DNA of 39,182 bases from Chlorobaculum sp. (lineage in GTDB: Bacteria > Bacteroidota > Chlorobiia > Chlorobiales > Chlorobiaceae), in the NCBI GenBank assembly GCA_013334855.1, contig JAAXWU010000007.1, positions 1 through 39,182 of the forward strand, written 5' to 3'. Below, in pieces: positions 9,701 to 16,423 of this stretch. Position 1 is the first letter of the stretch. Each line of letters opens with the position of its first letter. The notes beneath the pieces are model-generated. The model saw nothing but the letters and a program-made list of their open reading frames with translations, was not told the DNA's origin and made no database searches. A program made the position numbers and the translations under genes.

Positions 9701-10288
9701 CTATTGCCCACGCCTGTTGCTTCGCACCCGGTAGAGGCGCTCGGTGAAGCCGCCGCCCTCCTCGAAAGATTGAGCAAGCGTGCGAATTTGCCGGTCGAGC
9801 AAAGCGCAAGCCACGGCAATGAGCGCAAGCGCGGCATTGGCGGAAATTTCCGGCAAAGTTGAAGCTTGTCCACAAAGTCCACGACGCCCACTTTGAAATT
9901 CTTCTTTCACCCACTGCGCTACTTCGTCGGCGGCGGTGCAGCGCGAATCGATCAGGCGTTGCCGCCTCGGGTCGATGCGGGGCCATATCGGCAGGTTGCG
10001 GTGGCGCAGGAAATCCTCGTAGTCGAGCTTCAGCTCTTCAAGGCTGGCTCGTGCGACGTTGGTAAGCTTCAGTTCGCTTTTCTTCGAGGTGCCCGATGCC
10101 TGGCGGCCTTCAGCAATGTTCTGCACGCCGTAACGTGCGGCTTGCACCATCTGGTCGTGGGTGCGGCTTTTCTTTTCGATAAACCGGTCGCAAAAGCGTA
10201 CCGTAACGTCGTACACAAGCTGCGCGAGCTGGAAGTTTTTGAGGTTTCGGTATCCGCCATGCGTCGGAATAAGGGGTTCCGGGTTCAT
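9701..10288 (-). CDS. Four helix bundle protein with 'suffix' domain (S23/IVS-like)
   Basis: The 195-residue product begins with the four helix bundle (23S rRNA intervening-sequence/S23-like) domain at about residues 14-130. It shows NFQLAQLVYDVTVRFCDRF, the hallmark QMVQAARYGVQNIAEGR, and ASLEELKLDYEDFLRHRNL. A short Gly-rich linker at 133-143 (GRRGLCGQA) is followed by the suffix domain at about 147-188 (NAALALIAVACALLDRQI, then FEEGGGFTERLYRVR). This arrangement matches the family I recall as 'four helix bundle suffix domain' proteins. Their biochemical role is not established; S23-like bundles are compact helical proteins first seen in rRNA intervening sequences. ATG 10288 is preferred because the upstream part of the open frame translates the repeat array. 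The gene is enclosed by inverted repeat arrays, and the linker itself is coded by a copy of the same repeat. Confidence 0.85.
   Translation of the reverse strand: MNPEPLIPTHGGYRNLKNFQLAQLVYDVTVRFCDRFIEKKSRTHDQMVQAARYGVQNIAEGRQASGTSKKSELKLTNVARASLEELKLDYEDFLRHRNLPIWPRIDPRRQRLIDSRCTAADEVAQWVKEEFQSGRRGLCGQASTLPEISANAALALIAVACALLDRQIRTLAQSFEEGGGFTERLYRVRSNRRGQ
9868..9891. repeat. In-frame copy of the 9-nt repeat inside the four-helix-bundle gene
   Basis: GTCCAC at 9868, GTCCAC at 9877 and a degenerate GCCCAC at 9886, spaced exactly 9 bases. Because 9 is a multiple of 3 the reading frame is kept, and on the minus strand the units encode G-x-x tripeptides (GRR-GLC-GQA) in the linker between the bundle and the suffix domain. 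Confidence 0.9.
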
Positions 10289-10322
10289 GGGAAATAGCGT
10301 TTTGGTTGTTGTTTTGTGCAGT

Positions 10323-10395
10323 GTGGACGATGTGGACTTTGTGGACAATATTCTTTGGCTTTGTCCACAAAGTCCACAGCGTCCGACAACTCCAC
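10323..10395. repeat. Inverted array of 9-nt-period GTGGACNNN repeats (right array)
   Basis: GTGGAC units at 10323, 10332 and 10341 face GTCCAC at 10363 and 10372, then degenerate GTCCGA at 10381 and CTCCAC at 10390, all on a 9-base period. The array lies between the blc stop codon (10395-10397), which it touches, and the start codon of the four-helix-bundle gene at 10288. It is the mirror of the array on the other side of that gene. Confidence 0.93.
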
Positions 10396-10913
10396 TATTG
10401 CGGCGTGCGCATAACCCTCGAAATATCAAAGCCCTGCGCTTTTGCTTCTTCGAGTAGCTTTGCGTAAAGCGCGTCGTCCATCTGTGGGGTTCTCGCGAGA
10501 ATCCAGAAGTAGTCGCGGCTGGAGGCTGTTACCATTGCCCAGGAGTAGTTTTCGCGGTCGAGGGCGAAAACGTTGTACGGGCCGTAGAATGGGCCGAAAA
10601 ACGACACTTTCAACGCTCCGACGTTCGGGTCTACGGCAAATTTGGCTTTGCCTTCGGCGGTTTTCCACTTCTTTTTTTCGGGATAGTAGCCTTTGTTGAG
10701 CACCTGCACCATGCCGTCCTTGCGTAGCGTGTAGATGGCCGAGACCTGCTCCGATCCGCGCTCGAAGCGGTTGTCGATTCTTGCGATTTCGTACCACGTG
10801 CCGAGGTAGCGGTCGAGCTTGAAGTTATCGACCGCCACAATCCCCTCCGGCGCGCCGGTGCACCCGACAAGCAGTATCGGCCAGAGCAGTAAAAGCAGAA
10901 TGAGTTTTTTCAT
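10395..10913 (-). CDS. blc: Bacterial lipocalin (outer-membrane lipoprotein)
   Basis: The 172-residue product has a lipoprotein signal peptide (MKKLILLLLLWPILLVGC, lipobox LVGC with Cys18) and the lipocalin first-strand motif YLGTWYEIAR at 37-46. It continues with DGMVQVLNKGY, GKAKFAVDPNVGALKVSFFGPFYG, NYSWAMV and ILARTPQMDD, the usual order of the Blc family. Bacterial lipocalins bind fatty acids or lysophospholipids at the outer membrane and are often stress-induced in envelope maintenance. The gene is transcribed toward the four-helix-bundle gene and may be co-transcribed with it across the repeat array. No Asp at position +2 argues for outer-membrane sorting by the usual proteobacterial rule, which may not hold here. 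Confidence 0.93.
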   Translation of the reverse strand: MKKLILLLLLWPILLVGCTGAPEGIVAVDNFKLDRYLGTWYEIARIDNRFERGSEQVSAIYTLRKDGMVQVLNKGYYPEKKKWKTAEGKAKFAVDPNVGALKVSFFGPFYGPYNVFALDRENYSWAMVTASSRDYFWILARTPQMDDALYAKLLEEAKAQGFDISRVMRTPQ

Positions 10914-11765
10914 AGATGTTCTCTCGTTTAGTTTTGAAAGAACAACAAAATCCCCGCTTCAGAGTTCCGGGAGGCAGATAGTCAGGATTCCACAATATGA
11001 CGGGAGCGTACAACTTTTTCGACGACGTCAGGAATGGTAGGTGCAGCATTTTTTCACCAGCAAAGGCATCGGCGAGAAGGTCGAACAGCGCATCGGTCGC
11101 GATGTCGGCATTGGTATGATTGAGGTCGAACTGATGAAAATGCAAGAACTTGCCTGTTTTTTCAGGGATGGAGGAGGCTGAATCAACGTCGCCCCTGTTT
11201 CGTTCAGACGAGTTTGTTCGCTTGACTATCGAAGGATGAAAAAATGCGGAGTTCTCAGCATCGCAGCCGTAGACCTCAAGCCACTTCATGAAGAGCGTCG
11301 CAACGCTGTCGGCATCGGGTGTATTTGGTATGATGTTTGAAATGGATGGGAGCGTGTGCTTCCAGAGTAAAAAAGCAAAACAACGATCTCTCTTTTAGCC
11401 AATAGCTTTTGACTCTCAGACAGCCTTCACTTGTCGGGTCAAAAAAATCGTGCAATCAGTGCCTTCGAATTTGCTTTATGTTACAATTTTTTTACATTCA
11501 TATAAAGTGTCGGCAGGAACATAAGGCAGAATAACCTTTTCCCCACAGCCAATGCCCCACGCAAGCTCCATCTTACGGTTCGCGCCTCTCGAATACAGAG
11601 GCGAACATCCACAACTACCGGGTGTAACCCGGCTTCGTAGTTGCGAATTATCGCATTTCTCTGAATCGGAGAGGGTAATCGATTTACTGCTCAGGCTGTA
11701 GAGTAGTGTAGATAAGCAGGATGAACGTGATTATAGGAAAGTTGCACACCTAAGAAAAAATCAAT
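10914..11765. other. Long non-coding stretch between blc and the helicase gene
   Basis: About 850 bases without a convincing gene. A minus-strand frame is open from about 11395 down into blc; its first ATG at 11289 gives 154 codons ending at 10825. It contains HFHQFDLNHTNADIATDALF but matches no family I know, overlaps the blc start out of frame and lacks a ribosome site, so it may be a gene remnant. From 11400 the GC content falls toward that of the AT-rich helicase gene. Two hairpins lie at 11584-11643, listed separately. Confidence 0.4.
11584..11643. repeat. Two adjacent palindromes upstream of the helicase gene
   Basis: GCCTCT (11584-11589) pairs with AGAGGC (11597-11602). Directly after, CAACTAC (11612-11618) pairs with GTAGTTG (11637-11643), enclosing a second palindrome CCGGGTGTAACCCGG (11618-11632). 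The structure lacks a T-run, so it is not a simple terminator. It lies at the junction between GC-rich core DNA and the AT-rich insertion. Confidence 0.55.
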
Positions 11766-14700
11766 ATGATGTTTAAGGAACTTTATTCTGAACTGATTTT
11801 CTCGAATATCGAGAGGCATAAAGCAGATAGAATAAATCAAATATTTGTTCTATTAGGGCAGTCAAACTTATTGAAAGTAGAAGGTATAGAGAAGTTGATT
11901 GTTGATCGAGAAACATTTAATCTTGAAAAAGATGAGCAAGTATTTAATAAAGAATGGTTTTCTATGACTTTTACTAAGCTTCAACAGGAAAAAGAGTATC
12001 ATCTTTTGTCTTTTGGTCAATTTAGTTATCTTATTAATTTTATAGCGCCTTCATTTTTTGCGGACAGAGTAGTAATAATTAAAGATAATTTGCGTCAGCT
12101 TTTTCCTATTGATAAGCAGGATTATATTGAAAAGGATGAGAAGGAAAATATTGAAATACGTCCAGATAGGCTTCCTGTTTATCAGGCAGAACAAATGGTA
12201 GTTAATGAAAGATATTTTTACTCTCTAAAAACGCCTGTTGAATCGTTTGATACTTATGATATTTTTACAGAGTCAATGGAATTAGACTTTTCAAGCAATC
12301 AGGTTTTAGAAAATATCGATGTTAGTTCTGATCCATATTCTATAGATATTTTTCTTAACGATTGTATTGAGAAAGATGATTTTTCAAGGAAGGCTATTGT
12401 GAAATTTTACTGTAAGCAACAATTAAATCCAATCGTTCTAAATAAATTAAAAAAAATTAATTCACTTTTAAATAAGTTTGGTGGGGCACTTTTTATCTTT
12501 AAGGAAGCATCAGCATTGTCGGATTGTAGGGTGAGTAGTGAAACTCAAGAAATGCTAGTGAGTTATTGGGGTGAAAATGCTTTTTTTAGAAATATATCTA
12601 TTTATAAGAGCCCAGATGCTAACAATGAAATAATAGGATTGTCACAAGGTCTGATTGTAGAAAAAATCATAAATGAATACGAGAATTCAAAAGGTGATGG
12701 GCCTTGTAGGGATTTATTCTTAACGGCTCCTACCGGATCGGGTAAGTCCCTACTTTTTCAATTGCCAGCATTTTATGTTTCTAATCACAACGATGTTGTT
12801 GTCGTGGTTTCTCCATTGATAGCTTTAATGAAGGATCAAGTCAATGCGATTATCAAAGATAGAGGTTTTGATAAAGTGGCTTATATAAATAGTGAACTAA
12901 GTTTAATAGATCGTGAGCGAGTTATAGAAAGTTGTAAGAATGGTGAGATTGATATGCTTTATATGTCTCCTGAACTTCTGCTATCATACGATATAACTCA
13001 TTTTATTGGTTTTAGAAGGCTTGGTTTGTTGGTGATAGATGAAGCTCATCTTATTACAACTTGGGGACGAGATTTTAGGGTGGATTATTGGTTTCTTGGG
13101 AACTATATAAGGAAAATGAGAAAGTATCATAGCCTTAAATTTCCTATGGTTGCGGTTACTGCAACTGCAATATATGGAGGTGCTAATGATATGGTATTTG
13201 ATAGTATTGATAGTCTGGTGATGAATAATCCGCATATTTTTATTGGACAAGTGAGGAGAAATGACATTGAGTTTATTGTGAATAATTATGAGCGGTTTAC
13301 TGTTAATTATGAGTCAAGCAAAACAAGTCAAACAGTCGAATTTATTAAGAGTATAAATAAACTTGGTTTTAAGACTTTGGTCTATACACCTTATGTTCGT
13401 CATATTCAACAGATTCTTAATCAAGTGAACGCTGACCAGCAAAATATCGCGACAGGATATTATGGCTCATTAGACTCATTAAATAAAGAGTTTGCTTATA
13501 GGCAATTCAAGAGTGGGGAAAGAAAAGTAATGATTTCTACAAAAGCTTTTGGGATGGGGGTCGATATATCTGATATACAAGTAGTATACCATCATGCGCC
13601 ATCGGGTTTGCTGCCTGACTATGTTCAGGAAATTGGTAGGGTTGCAAGAAAAGCTGAAATAAAAGGTTTTGCGACATTGAATTATTCTTCTCAAGATCAG
13701 CGATATACTAGGGCTCTTCACGGGATGTCTGCTCTTAGACAGTATCAGATAAAAGAGATGCTGAAAAAAATTCATAAGGCATATATAAAGAATGGTAAAA
13801 ATAGAAATCTTCTTTTGTCGGTAGATGATTTTGGTCATATTTTTGAAAATGCTCTTGATCTTGATCAAAAGGTTTTGACGGCTTTAATGATGATTGAAAA
13901 AGATTACTTAGCCAAAAACCGTTTTAATGTAATATTGGCGCGCCCAAAGAAGCTTTTTGTAAAGGTCTATGCGAGAGTGTCGGGTCAACATCTTGATATC
14001 CTAAAAGTTAAGTATTTAAATACTTTTAGAGTTCTTGAAGTGTCAGGAAATGGCAATAATATCATAGAGCTAGACCTAGATAAGCTATGGTATGATTTTT
14101 TTGTGAACAAAAGCTTTCCAATTCTAAAGCGGGATTTTTATGCGGGTAAATTATTTAAGGATGATGATGTTGATCTGATGCCAAAATTAAAGATTTCATT
14201 TGAGCGACTTGATAGTTTTGATAACGTCTTTAATAATCTTAATAATTTATTGAGTTCAGTTCAGGATATATTTTCAAATATAAGCGGTTTCTTTGAGAAA
14301 GATGATTTTAAGAAAAGATTGAACGATTATTTACATAATTCGGAGAAGGCTGAAAAGTTATCTAGATTTATATTGTCTTCCTATTCTGGACGGCTTATTC
14401 GCCCTGGTGTTGTTGAGTCAAATGCTTTTTTGCAAAAACGTAAAAGTATTGATGGTTATGAATACAGAGTATTTAATAATCAATACTTGGCAAGTTTTAT
14501 GTCTTTGAAAAAGAGTTTAACTGATCTTTTCGGAAACGCTGACAGACCACTAGTGGAAAGGTATGTCACCAATAAAGATTCCAGTTCAGTTAATTATGTG
14601 AGGCTTGGCTACTTTTTGGAAATCCTTGAGCTAGGAACATTTGAAGTTAAAGGTGGTGAGAATCCAATGGTTTTTATTCGTATTAACGATCCTGACAGAA

Positions 14701-14948
14701 TTGAGCGAGATTCTAAAAACTCAAGTTATTCGAATAGTCTTCTTTCAAAGACGTTGGAGAAACACTATTTGAGTAATCAAATTTATGATCACTTTTTTTT
14801 GAGAAGTTTTACAAATGCAGAGCGATGGAATTTTATTGAAGACTTCTTCTTGGGGGCAGATGTTGATACTATCCTTGAGAAATACAAGGGTGGTGAAGCA
14901 AATAATATTGATATAATTGAAACTCTAAAAAAAAAGAATTATTATTAA
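11766..14948 (+). CDS. Large RecQ-like superfamily 2 DNA helicase, AT-rich accessory gene
   Basis: The 1060-residue frame contains a RecQ-like helicase core. Walker A is APTGSGKS at 321-328, followed by VVSPLIALMKDQV (motif Ia, RecQ-like), MSPELLL and a VIDEAH box (DEAH at 425-428) continuing HLITTWGRDFR, the RecQ aromatic-loop equivalent. Motif III is VAVTATA. The second RecA domain has MISTKAFGMGVDISDIQVVYHH, and motif VI is QEIGRVAR at 621-628. About 300 residues precede the core and about 400 follow it; I recognise no domain in either. It should use ATP to unwind DNA, but RQC zinc-binding and HRDC domains are not evident. Base composition and codon use are far more AT-rich than all neighbours, pointing to horizontal transfer. 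The C-terminal part appears to continue in the -1 frame after an A9 run (14927-14935). Large RecQ-like helicases occur in phage-defence loci (for example DpdF), but no partner gene is visible here. Start chosen at the first of two consecutive ATGs. Confidence 0.85.
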   Translation: MMFKELYSELIFSNIERHKADRINQIFVLLGQSNLLKVEGIEKLIVDRETFNLEKDEQVFNKEWFSMTFTKLQQEKEYHLLSFGQFSYLINFIAPSFFADRVVIIKDNLRQLFPIDKQDYIEKDEKENIEIRPDRLPVYQAEQMVVNERYFYSLKTPVESFDTYDIFTESMELDFSSNQVLENIDVSSDPYSIDIFLNDCIEKDDFSRKAIVKFYCKQQLNPIVLNKLKKINSLLNKFGGALFIFKEASALSDCRVSSETQEMLVSYWGENAFFRNISIYKSPDANNEIIGLSQGLIVEKIINEYENSKGDGPCRDLFLTAPTGSGKSLLFQLPAFYVSNHNDVVVVVSPLIALMKDQVNAIIKDRGFDKVAYINSELSLIDRERVIESCKNGEIDMLYMSPELLLSYDITHFIGFRRLGLLVIDEAHLITTWGRDFRVDYWFLGNYIRKMRKYHSLKFPMVAVTATAIYGGANDMVFDSIDSLVMNNPHIFIGQVRRNDIEFIVNNYERFTVNYESSKTSQTVEFIKSINKLGFKTLVYTPYVRHIQQILNQVNADQQNIATGYYGSLDSLNKEFAYRQFKSGERKVMISTKAFGMGVDISDIQVVYHHAPSGLLPDYVQEIGRVARKAEIKGFATLNYSSQDQRYTRALHGMSALRQYQIKEMLKKIHKAYIKNGKNRNLLLSVDDFGHIFENALDLDQKVLTALMMIEKDYLAKNRFNVILARPKKLFVKVYARVSGQHLDILKVKYLNTFRVLEVSGNGNNIIELDLDKLWYDFFVNKSFPILKRDFYAGKLFKDDDVDLMPKLKISFERLDSFDNVFNNLNNLLSSVQDIFSNISGFFEKDDFKKRLNDYLHNSEKAEKLSRFILSSYSGRLIRPGVVESNAFLQKRKSIDGYEYRVFNNQYLASFMSLKKSLTDLFGNADRPLVERYVTNKDSSSVNYVRLGYFLEILELGTFEVKGGENPMVFIRINDPDRIERDSKNSSYSNSLLSKTLEKHYLSNQIYDHFFLRSFTNAERWNFIEDFFLGADVDTILEKYKGGEANNIDIIETLKKKNYY
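14927..14935 (+). other. A9 run: candidate -1 frameshift site at the end of the helicase frame
   Basis: In the helicase frame the bases read CTA AAA AAA AAG, so both A-AAA-AAA and A-AAA-AAG heptamers occur; the latter equals the dnaX-type slippery site. The -1 frame is open from 14921 to the stop at 15433, and the zero-frame stop is at 14946, so only 14921-14948 is shared. A -1 slip here would fuse the helicase to the following 159-codon frame. An indel in the homopolymer or a sequencing error would look the same. Confidence 0.6.
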
Positions 14949-14953
14949 CGGAG

Positions 14954-15433
14954 GTGTCTTCTGATCAAGGTGATGATTTTAATGTTAATATTTTTTATCC
15001 TAATGCTGAAAAGTATTATTTTCTCAAAGACCCATTAACAATAGTAGATGAAGGTGGGGTTAGAACAAAAAGAGTCATGGAGTGGTTAAGTGAAGATCCT
15101 GTAGCCTTTGATATAGTTAGAAAAGAAACACCTTTTAAGGTCAATAAAGATGTGTTTGATATACTGATTTCAAAGCTAAATGCCCACCACAAAGAATATG
15201 TCAAGAAAGTACTGGGGCTGAAATTTAAAATAGAATTCAAGGGATATTCTAGACCCGTTCAAGCCGCTGTTCCATATTCTACAAAGCCAGTAGATTTTTA
15301 TAAGTGGTGGTGTTCAAATCAGGAGAATGTGATTATGACAATAGAGGAAAAAGTTAAGCTATTTAACAAGGTGTATTTACTAAAACCAACGGTATTGAAA
15401 AGAGAACACAAGAATCTGATAAAAAAAACATAA
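14954..15433 (+). CDS. Probable C-terminal continuation of the helicase in the -1 frame (or separate small gene)
   Basis: The frame encodes about 159 residues from a GTG at 14954, but that codon overlaps the only ribosome-site-like sequence (CGGAGG, 14949-14954), so it is a poor start. The next in-frame ATG is about 40 codons in. The frame is already open upstream to 14921, through the A9 run inside the helicase gene, so a single frameshift would yield one protein of about 1,220 residues. It has the same AT-rich composition as the helicase. The sequence (for example TIVDEGGVRTKRVMEWLSED and FYKWWCSNQENVIMTIEEKV) belongs to no family I recognise. A separate partner protein translated by re-initiation is the alternative. 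Confidence 0.55.
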   Translation: MSSDQGDDFNVNIFYPNAEKYYFLKDPLTIVDEGGVRTKRVMEWLSEDPVAFDIVRKETPFKVNKDVFDILISKLNAHHKEYVKKVLGLKFKIEFKGYSRPVQAAVPYSTKPVDFYKWWCSNQENVIMTIEEKVKLFNKVYLLKPTVLKREHKNLIKKT

Positions 15434-15859
15434 TTACTCGGTATAGTGGTAGAAAGTTTCGTGTTTTTAATCTTGTAGTGCTCAAAGAGCCTACCGTTAA
15501 CCTTGCAAAAATCAAAATATTGATATTGTTGTTCATCTGCCCTTAACGCCACAGATTACACCTCAGTTTACATAAGCTAATCCCGACACCCGTCCACATA
15601 CCCCTGATTTCACGTTAATCCCATCTATAAATTGATAATCAATCCAACCCCATCCCCTCTTCGCCCCGCATCATTTCGCGCCCCGCTAACCCCAACTCAA
15701 CAACACATTTGAGTTTCGAGGTGAAACGGGGCTATATTGCGGCTTAACAGTCTGGCAGGGGTACGGCGGGGGGTCGAGAGAAAACGCGGGTATCGTTGCT
15801 GGGGCAAAGCTGTGATCTGGCTTGTTAAGTCTTTTTATAATAGTGTTTTACGTGCTCTT
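15434..15859. other. Gap between the AT-rich insertion and trpG
   Basis: No gene is visible in these 425 bases. The AT-rich character continues to about 15560, where composition returns toward that of the core genome; the right border of the insertion is therefore near 15540-15600. A plus-strand open frame from 15737 runs into trpG, but its first 41 codons have no family-like sequence. The trpG promoter should lie in the last 200 bases; no clear -10/-35 pair was assigned. Confidence 0.45.
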
Positions 15860-16423
15860 ATGATTCTTGTTATAGACAATTACGACTCGTTTACTTACAA
15901 CCTTGTCCAGTACATCGGCGAGCTTGGGGCTGAGGTTTCGGTGTACCGGAACGATGAACTCACCGTCGATGAGGCGCTGGCGCTGAAGCCGGAGAAGATC
16001 GTCATCTCTCCGGGGCCGGGTACGCCTGCGGACGCGGGCATCTCCATTGCGCTCATCGACGCCGCGAAGGGCAACATCCCGCTGCTCGGCGTCTGCTTGG
16101 GCCATCAGGCCATCGGCGAAGCTCTTGGGGGCAAGGTCGTTCGCGCCGGGCAGATCATGCACGGTAAAACCTCCGAGGTCTATCACGACGGGCAGGGGAT
16201 GTTCCGCGACATTCCGAACCCCTTCACGGCCACCCGTTACCACTCACTCATCGTCGAGCGACAAACGCTTCCGGCGGCGCTTGCAATCCGCGCATGGACG
16301 GAGGACGGCGTCATCATGGCCTTCGACTCGAAGGAACTCGGCCTGTACGGCGTGCAGTTCCATCCCGAATCGATCATGACCGCCGTCGGGCACGATCTCA
16401 TCAGAAACTTCCTTGAAATCTGA
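15860..16423 (+). CDS. trpG: Anthranilate/aminodeoxychorismate synthase glutamine amidotransferase subunit
   Basis: The 187-residue class I glutamine amidotransferase supplies ammonia to TrpE (tryptophan) and often also PabB (folate). It starts [18 protein letters not shown], typical of the family, and has the oxyanion-strand motif ISPGPGTP at 49-56. The nucleophile elbow is [11 protein letters not shown] with Cys79, and the His-Glu pair is QFHPES (His168, Glu170). ATG 15860 is chosen because the family begins exactly there; the upstream open frame is not conserved-looking. trpE is not adjacent. The LOG-family gene starts 7 bases after the stop, so the two are probably co-transcribed. trpF, another tryptophan gene, lies separately at 33.5-34.2 kb. 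Confidence 0.95.

What the first reader, a model, noticed from the sequence alone, without database searches (positions are those of the whole stretch)
14921..15433. A9 slippery run joins the helicase to a downstream -1 frame: programmed frameshift or one-base loss
The frames overlap only from 14921 to 14948, and the A9 run lies in that overlap with codons AAA AAA AAG, the same heptamer used in dnaX frameshifting. The downstream 159-codon frame has no well-placed start; its GTG lies on the only ribosome-site-like sequence. The two parts share composition. A single protein of about 1,220 residues is the simplest reading; the alternatives are a homopolymer mutation (ten A would restore the frame) or a sequencing error.
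Basis: partly seen in the sequence, partly recalled or inferred. Interest (0 to 1): 0.68.

Follow-up and report, generated by a model that had tools for sequence, protein, structure and literature searches.

The report
Poly-A slippage site in RecQ-like helicase
A run of nine A's puts the tail of a mobile RecQ-like helicase out of frame; relatives carry the same protein fused in one frame, yet three other distant lineages show the same one-base break at the same A-run, which suggests that slippage there makes a short and a long form of the helicase.

Summary
A 1,060-aa RecQ-like helicase ORF (11766-14948) overlaps a 170-codon -1 frame (14921-15433) by 28 nt, and the window's only A9 run (14927-14935) lies in the overlap. 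Homologues show what the second frame is: the C-terminal domain of the same protein. The sister gene in the same genus and other relatives read through the junction in one frame, giving about 1,222 aa, exactly the length a -1 shift gives here. Relative to them the window is one base short.

One mutation or sequencing error does not explain the rest. In a clade of ten relatives the junction is always a pure A9-A11 run. Four members (window, Emticicia complete genome, Bacteroidales MAG, Parafilimonas MAG) are displaced there, all in the same sense, with intact C-terminal frames and no sign of relaxed selection. There is no upstream Shine-Dalgarno and no conserved stem-loop, so transcriptional slippage fits better than dnaX-type ribosomal frameshifting. 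dnaX in the same genome carries an in-frame A10 with early stops in both other frames.

I favour slippage giving helicase-only and full-length forms. Recurrent one-base loss or phase variation remains a real rival. No RNA or protein evidence was available.

The parts
11766..14948 (+). RecQ-like DEAD/DEAH helicase, 1,060 aa in the 0 frame (Walker A APTGSGKS, DEAH, QEIGRVAR); the short product
   Evidence: Pfam DEAD 7e-21, Helicase_C 7e-19; PADLOC C3a193 'poss. alt. Cas3' 3e-167; RecQ models hit well below their cut-offs
14927..14935 (+). A9 run at the domain junction, holding A_AAA_AAG; proposed slippage site
   Evidence: run of 9-11 A in all relatives of the clade
14936..15433 (+). C-terminal domain in the -1 frame, 165 codons after the run, then stop TAA; about 170 aa, no named family; the tail of the long product
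   Evidence: (75% identical to the fused G009 tail)
14946..14948 (+). TAA that ends the short product
14949..14956 (+). CGGAGGTG: Shine-Dalgarno-like letters that overlap the only early start (GTG 14954) of the second frame; badly placed for it and absent from the other displaced genes
11505..15500 (+). AT-rich insert (33-34% GC) that carries the gene; trpG-type amidotransferase follows at 15737-16423 here and in G009

Best explanation
The two frames are one gene for a RecQ-like helicase with a C-terminal domain of about 170 aa. Shown: the fused frame is the form of nearly all relatives; the window lacks one base against them at the A-run that codes for Lys-Lys-Lys at the domain border. Inferred: the run is a slippage site. 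RNA polymerase adds an A to part of the transcripts (A9 to A10), so that ribosomes read on into the C-terminal domain (1,222 aa), while unslipped transcripts give the helicase alone (1,060 aa), a form complete in Firmicutes relatives. In relatives whose DNA is in frame, the same slippage would give the short form as the minor product. Because both forms are made from either register, the DNA register can drift between 0 and -1, which is what the ten relatives show.
For: Fused in one frame in sister gene G009 with exactly one more base and in all 12 tail-bearing relatives outside the clade at this junction. Within the clade the same -1 displacement at the same run in four lineages; on the tree they need four changes, at least two forced by supported branches. 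KKK is AAA AAA AAA in the product frame in all nine rows tested; the product of the genes' own AAA shares is 7e-5, only 4 of 32 other invariant Lys columns are all AAA, and synonymous sites are mostly saturated, so descent alone explains little. Four displaced tails carry no stop and no inner frame break; neutral simulation gives 0.09 for one tail at 0.05 substitutions per site; window-G009 tail dN/dS 0.20, like fused pairs at 0.17-0.21. No start before codon 47 in three of four tails. All four need an added A; in the A11 run of C. rodentium tssM1, transcripts of 10 to 15 A were found, and 20-25% frameshifting gives two needed forms (PMC4256274). dnaX of the window's own genome, of G009, G003 and of the Emticicia and Parafilimonas hosts has an in-frame A10 with early stops in both other frames, the layout of T. 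thermophilus dnaX, where an A9 gives about 50% slippage (PMC1088944).
Against: No RNA, ribosome or peptide data. Long A-runs also mutate fast, so recurrent loss needs no function. Four in one direction among four is weak (1 in 8 by chance for one shared sign). In six of ten relatives the DNA is in frame, so the displaced state is not required. The G009 copy is cut by an insertion, so this gene can be lost. One of the four displaced genomes may rest on long reads, which miscall long runs.
Confidence: 0.55

Rival explanations
1. Recurrent loss of one A by replication slippage, either as plain decay of a dispensable tail or as reversible phase variation that switches the tail on and off. The window would make only the 1,060-aa helicase.
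For: A-runs of this length are hypermutable (PMC1088944, PMC3711429). Helicase-only relatives exist, so the truncated form may work. G009 carries an insertion in the same gene. Flectobacillus has a one-base loss in another A-run of the same gene (L057).
Against: Four displaced tails are all intact with no rise in amino-acid changes. All four are displaced in the same sense. If the A-run were only a liability, AAG codons would be expected in place of some AAA codons.
Confidence: 0.3
2. Programmed -1 ribosomal frameshifting on A_AAA_AAG, as in E. coli dnaX.
For: The heptamer is in the right phase in the window and in L049; A_AAA_AAA in L042 and L047. The product is the same as with slippage.
Against: No Shine-Dalgarno 10-14 nt upstream in any of the four. 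The 3' folds are no better than shuffles in window, L042 and L047 (z 0.2, 0.0, 1.0), and L049 (z -1.7) shares no structure with them. The whole run, not just a heptamer, is kept.
Confidence: 0.1
3. Sequencing or assembly error in the A-run of the window.
For: The window is from a fragmented draft (233 contigs, 88% complete); the difference is one base in a homopolymer.
Against: Same displacement in three other genomes from separate projects. An A9 is within reach of short reads.
Confidence: 0.04
4. The tail is a separate gene started at GTG 14954 after termination at 14948.
For: GGAGG lies next to that GTG. A free-standing copy with its own ATG exists in one genome (L153).
Against: No start before codon 47 in the three other displaced genes, and the first one there cuts into the conserved part. 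The GGAGG overlaps the GTG, too close to serve it. All fused relatives have no break.
Confidence: 0.03

Closest known systems
tssM1 of Citrobacter rodentium and tssM3 of Yersinia pseudotuberculosis (PMC4256274)
   Same: Poly-A tract at a domain border, frame displaced in one gene and intact in its counterpart; short and long products; no ribosomal stimulators.
   Different: There shown by Western blot, mass spectrometry and mutation. Unrelated protein. Here only comparative sequence evidence.
dnaX of Thermus thermophilus (A9 transcriptional slippage) and two-ORF dnaX genes with poly-A (PMC1088944, PMC3711429)
   Same: A9-A10 run, two lengths of one protein, DNA register that differs between species.
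   Different: Housekeeping clamp loader. Here a mobile, patchily distributed helicase.
dnaX of Escherichia coli (A_AAA_AAG ribosomal frameshift)
   Same: Same heptamer in the same phase in the window and in L049.
   Different: No upstream Shine-Dalgarno, no stem-loop; in E. coli the shift makes the short form, here it would make the long one.
PADLOC model C3a193 'poss. alt. Cas3' (RecQ-like helicases, also near DpdF and PsyrT)
   Same: Helicase matches over residues 209-1032 at 3e-167.
   Different: The model ends before the junction; the tail is in no family searched. No Cas genes were seen at the loci read.
Poly-A phase-variable (contingency) genes
   Same: Homopolymer in a coding region with registers that differ between lineages.
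   Different: Usually surface or modification genes that go fully off; here only the last domain is affected. Switching within a population was not testable.

Membership tests
Programmed transcriptional realignment (poly-A slippage) genes | Run of at least 8-9 A at the frame transition | tested here: met
   A9 in the window, 9-11 in ten relatives
Programmed transcriptional realignment (poly-A slippage) genes | Both frames under coding constraint | tested here: met
   Tail dN/dS 0.20 for window-G009; four displaced tails intact
Programmed transcriptional realignment (poly-A slippage) genes | Run conserved beyond what the amino acids require | tested here: met
   AAA in 27 of 27 codons; 7e-5 under independence, which relatedness weakens somewhat
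Programmed transcriptional realignment (poly-A slippage) genes | Transcripts with extra or missing A | not testable with these tools
   No RNA data held
Programmed -1 ribosomal frameshift (dnaX type) | X_XXY_YYZ heptamer in phase | tested here: met
   A_AAA_AAG in window and L049; A_AAA_AAA in L042 and L047
Programmed -1 ribosomal frameshift (dnaX type) | Upstream Shine-Dalgarno and/or downstream stem-loop or pseudoknot | tested here: not met
   None upstream; folds at chance level in three of four and not shared; pseudoknots not searched
Phase-variable gene | Run length differs between lineages so that register changes | tested here: met
Phase-variable gene | Mixed run lengths within one population | not testable with these tools
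   No reads available
RecQ helicase (TIGR01389 / TIGR00614) | Score over the curated cut-off | tested here: not met
   201.7 against 640.2 bits; 176.7 against 219.8: RecQ-like core only
PADLOC C3a193 | Match over most of the model | tested here: met
   Model 197-982 of 983; what the model does biologically is not established

The most novel reading that the evidence does not exclude
A mobile, defence-like RecQ-type helicase shared across phyla makes two forms, with and without a new C-terminal domain, through a kept poly-A slippage site; the site lets the DNA register drift freely between in-frame and -1, so that annotated 'pseudogenes' and intact genes of this family express the same pair of proteins.
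Probability: 0.45. Interest if true: 0.65.

Novelty: new member of a known kind. Interest (0 to 1): 0.5.

Why it matters
If slippage is real here, a helicase of defence type is made in two lengths at a set ratio, as dnaX and tssM are, and the short form matches the helicase-only proteins of other phyla. It would also mean that several annotated frameshifted helicases are functional, and give a natural series (A9, A10, A11; in frame and -1) for measuring poly-A slippage outside the usual model bacteria. The tail domain itself is a family with no name, no solved relative and no fold match.

Tried and rejected
Separate gene for the tail: no start in three of four displaced genes. Stem-loop stimulator: folds at shuffle level. 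Tail as a known domain: no match in Pfam, PADLOC or NCBIfam, only weak sequence hits in the PDB, best E 0.008 over 25 residues, no fold match below E 0.5. Viral contigs: no relatives of helicase or tail. Plasmids: helicase-only relatives, no tail. More clade members: 390 genomes of the Emticicia order, 393 of the Bacteroidales and 398 of the Parafilimonas order gave one more, in frame. A conserved partner gene: none at the loci read; neighbours differ. Counting singleton changes to date the shifts is biased by saturated synonymous sites; used only to compare displaced with in-frame rows.

Full report
Observation. The helicase ORF (11766-14948) and the frame 14921-15433 overlap in 28 nt that hold the window's only A9. 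The second frame has one early start, GTG 14954, inside ACGGAGGTG. Both parts share 33-34% GC in a genome stretch of mostly 50-65%. A shift of -1 on AAG (14934-14936) gives LKKK-ELLLTEVSSDQGDD and a protein of 1,222 aa.

What the second frame is. In the same genus, genome G009 has an 80%-identical copy at the same place, upstream of the trpG-type amidotransferase, with 7 kb of 83% synteny behind it. G009's gene is cut at about residue 970 by an insertion whose ends are inverted repeats (GGCCAYCTC) flanked by TTTA on both sides; the contigs end inside it. Its C-terminal part still reads ...IIENLKKKDLSVAKEFVDLGDDFNVHIFYP... in one frame of 285 codons, aligned with the window over the whole tail with one missing base at the A-run and 75% identity in protein. 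A scan of 84,980 genomes gave 20 helicases with this tail. At the junction, 17 are in one frame with the helicase; L039, L041 and L043 are 1,222 aa from the start codon, others 1,221 to 1,257. The tail is absent from Firmicutes and plasmid relatives, whose helicase ends where the run would be. So the tail is an added domain and the short product is a complete helicase elsewhere.

The break recurs. Three of the 20, Emticicia sp. 21SJ11W-3 (complete genome, A11), a Bacteroidales MAG (L047, A11) and a Parafilimonas MAG (L049, A9), are displaced like the window: -1, at the same run, with the tail open to its end. All belong, with the window and five in-frame genes, to one supported clade (99/99) whose members all have the long run; a tenth, found later, is in frame with A9. 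The 12 relatives outside the clade have no such run and none is broken at this point. On the tree the displaced state needs four changes, at least two of them forced. In-frame members have A9 after CTT or CTC, or A10 after CTA; displaced members have one A fewer than a frame would need.

Is the run kept? In the product frame the three Lys codons are AAA in all nine rows tested, while these genes use AAA for 56-80% of Lys; the product of the shares is 7e-5. Of 32 other invariant Lys columns, four are all AAA. Synonymous sites are saturated between most pairs, so the rows are nearly independent there, though not fully.

Is the tail kept? Window-G009 dN/dS is 0.20 in the tail and 0.12 in the helicase; pairs of in-frame genes give 0.07-0.21 in the tail. 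Lineage-specific changes show no excess of amino-acid changes in displaced rows (1.81 against 2.59 for in-frame rows). Without selection, one tail would keep its frame with probability 0.09 at 0.05 substitutions per site (indels assumed at 5% of substitutions). Either each shift is very young, or the tail is still expressed.

Mechanism. For ribosomal shifting the heptamer is there, but no Shine-Dalgarno upstream and no stem-loop beyond chance that is shared. For transcriptional slippage the length fits: selection against A/T runs sets in at nine in many bacteria, and A9 in T. thermophilus dnaX gives about half short product (PMC1088944); A11 in tssM1 gives transcripts of 10-15 A and 20-25% frameshifting, with both forms needed (PMC4256274). 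Two-ORF dnaX genes with poly-A were reported in several species and ascribed to slippage (PMC3711429). The window's own genome has dnaX with an in-frame A10, in a 64% GC gene, with a stop two codons after the run if one A is added and four codons after if one is lost; the same in G009 and G003, and an A10 of the same kind in the hosts of L042 and L049. This shows that the hosts carry what looks like a working poly-A site; it does not show that the helicase run slips.

Function. The core is RecQ-like but under the RecQ cut-offs, and the best model is PADLOC C3a193. The gene is patchy, AT-rich in a GC-rich host, crosses phyla at 70-80% identity, and sits beside an integrase, AIPR and RhuM genes, a C5 methylase with HNH nuclease, or an HTH-IrrE gene. 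I read it as a stand-alone defence-type helicase; that is inference. The tail is predicted as a helical domain with one hairpin (pLDDT 83) without a structural match.

Verdict. One gene, one base short against its fused relatives: about 0.95. Slippage at the run giving two forms: 0.55, most likely by RNA polymerase. Recurrent loss or phase variation: 0.3.

Noticed in passing
G009: L032 10150-10452 and L033 8024-8117: The sister helicase gene is interrupted at about residue 970 by an insertion with inverted ends (GGCCAYCTC...) and a repeated TTTA; both contigs end inside it. A 60-aa piece that looks to me like an IS transposase start had no Pfam match.
   Followed up: partly
L057 7575 (Flectobacillus sp. 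BAB-3569): One-base loss in a different A-run in the middle of the same helicase; the junction there is in frame. May be an error or decay.
   Followed up: partly
L148 1015-1024 (G000 dnaX), also L143, L145, L146, L147: dnaX with an in-frame A10 and early stops in both other frames in the window's genome, two genus mates, Emticicia and Parafilimonas hosts: a likely gamma/tau slippage site.
   Followed up: yes
L153 (reverse complement 1504-1992): Free-standing copy of the tail domain, 162 aa with its own ATG, beside a gene that looks like a Crp-type regulator; the same genome has a 43%-identical helicase without the tail on another contig.
   Followed up: partly
L157 1468-1797: Remnant of the tail domain (about 97 residues) with no helicase next to it.
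   Followed up: no
L038 2845-4218 and L037 3116-4240: In Lactobacillales plasmids the helicase-only relative follows directly on a gene annotated as sigma-70 family factor, a possible partner.
   Followed up: no
window 15421-15428: A8 at the very end of the tail, against A7 in G009; it changes the last residues (LIKKT against MIKKHKKSL).
   Followed up: no
window 9704-10429: Weak match to a 23S rRNA intervening sequence protein (below its cut-off) near the left edge of the AT-rich insert.
   Followed up: no
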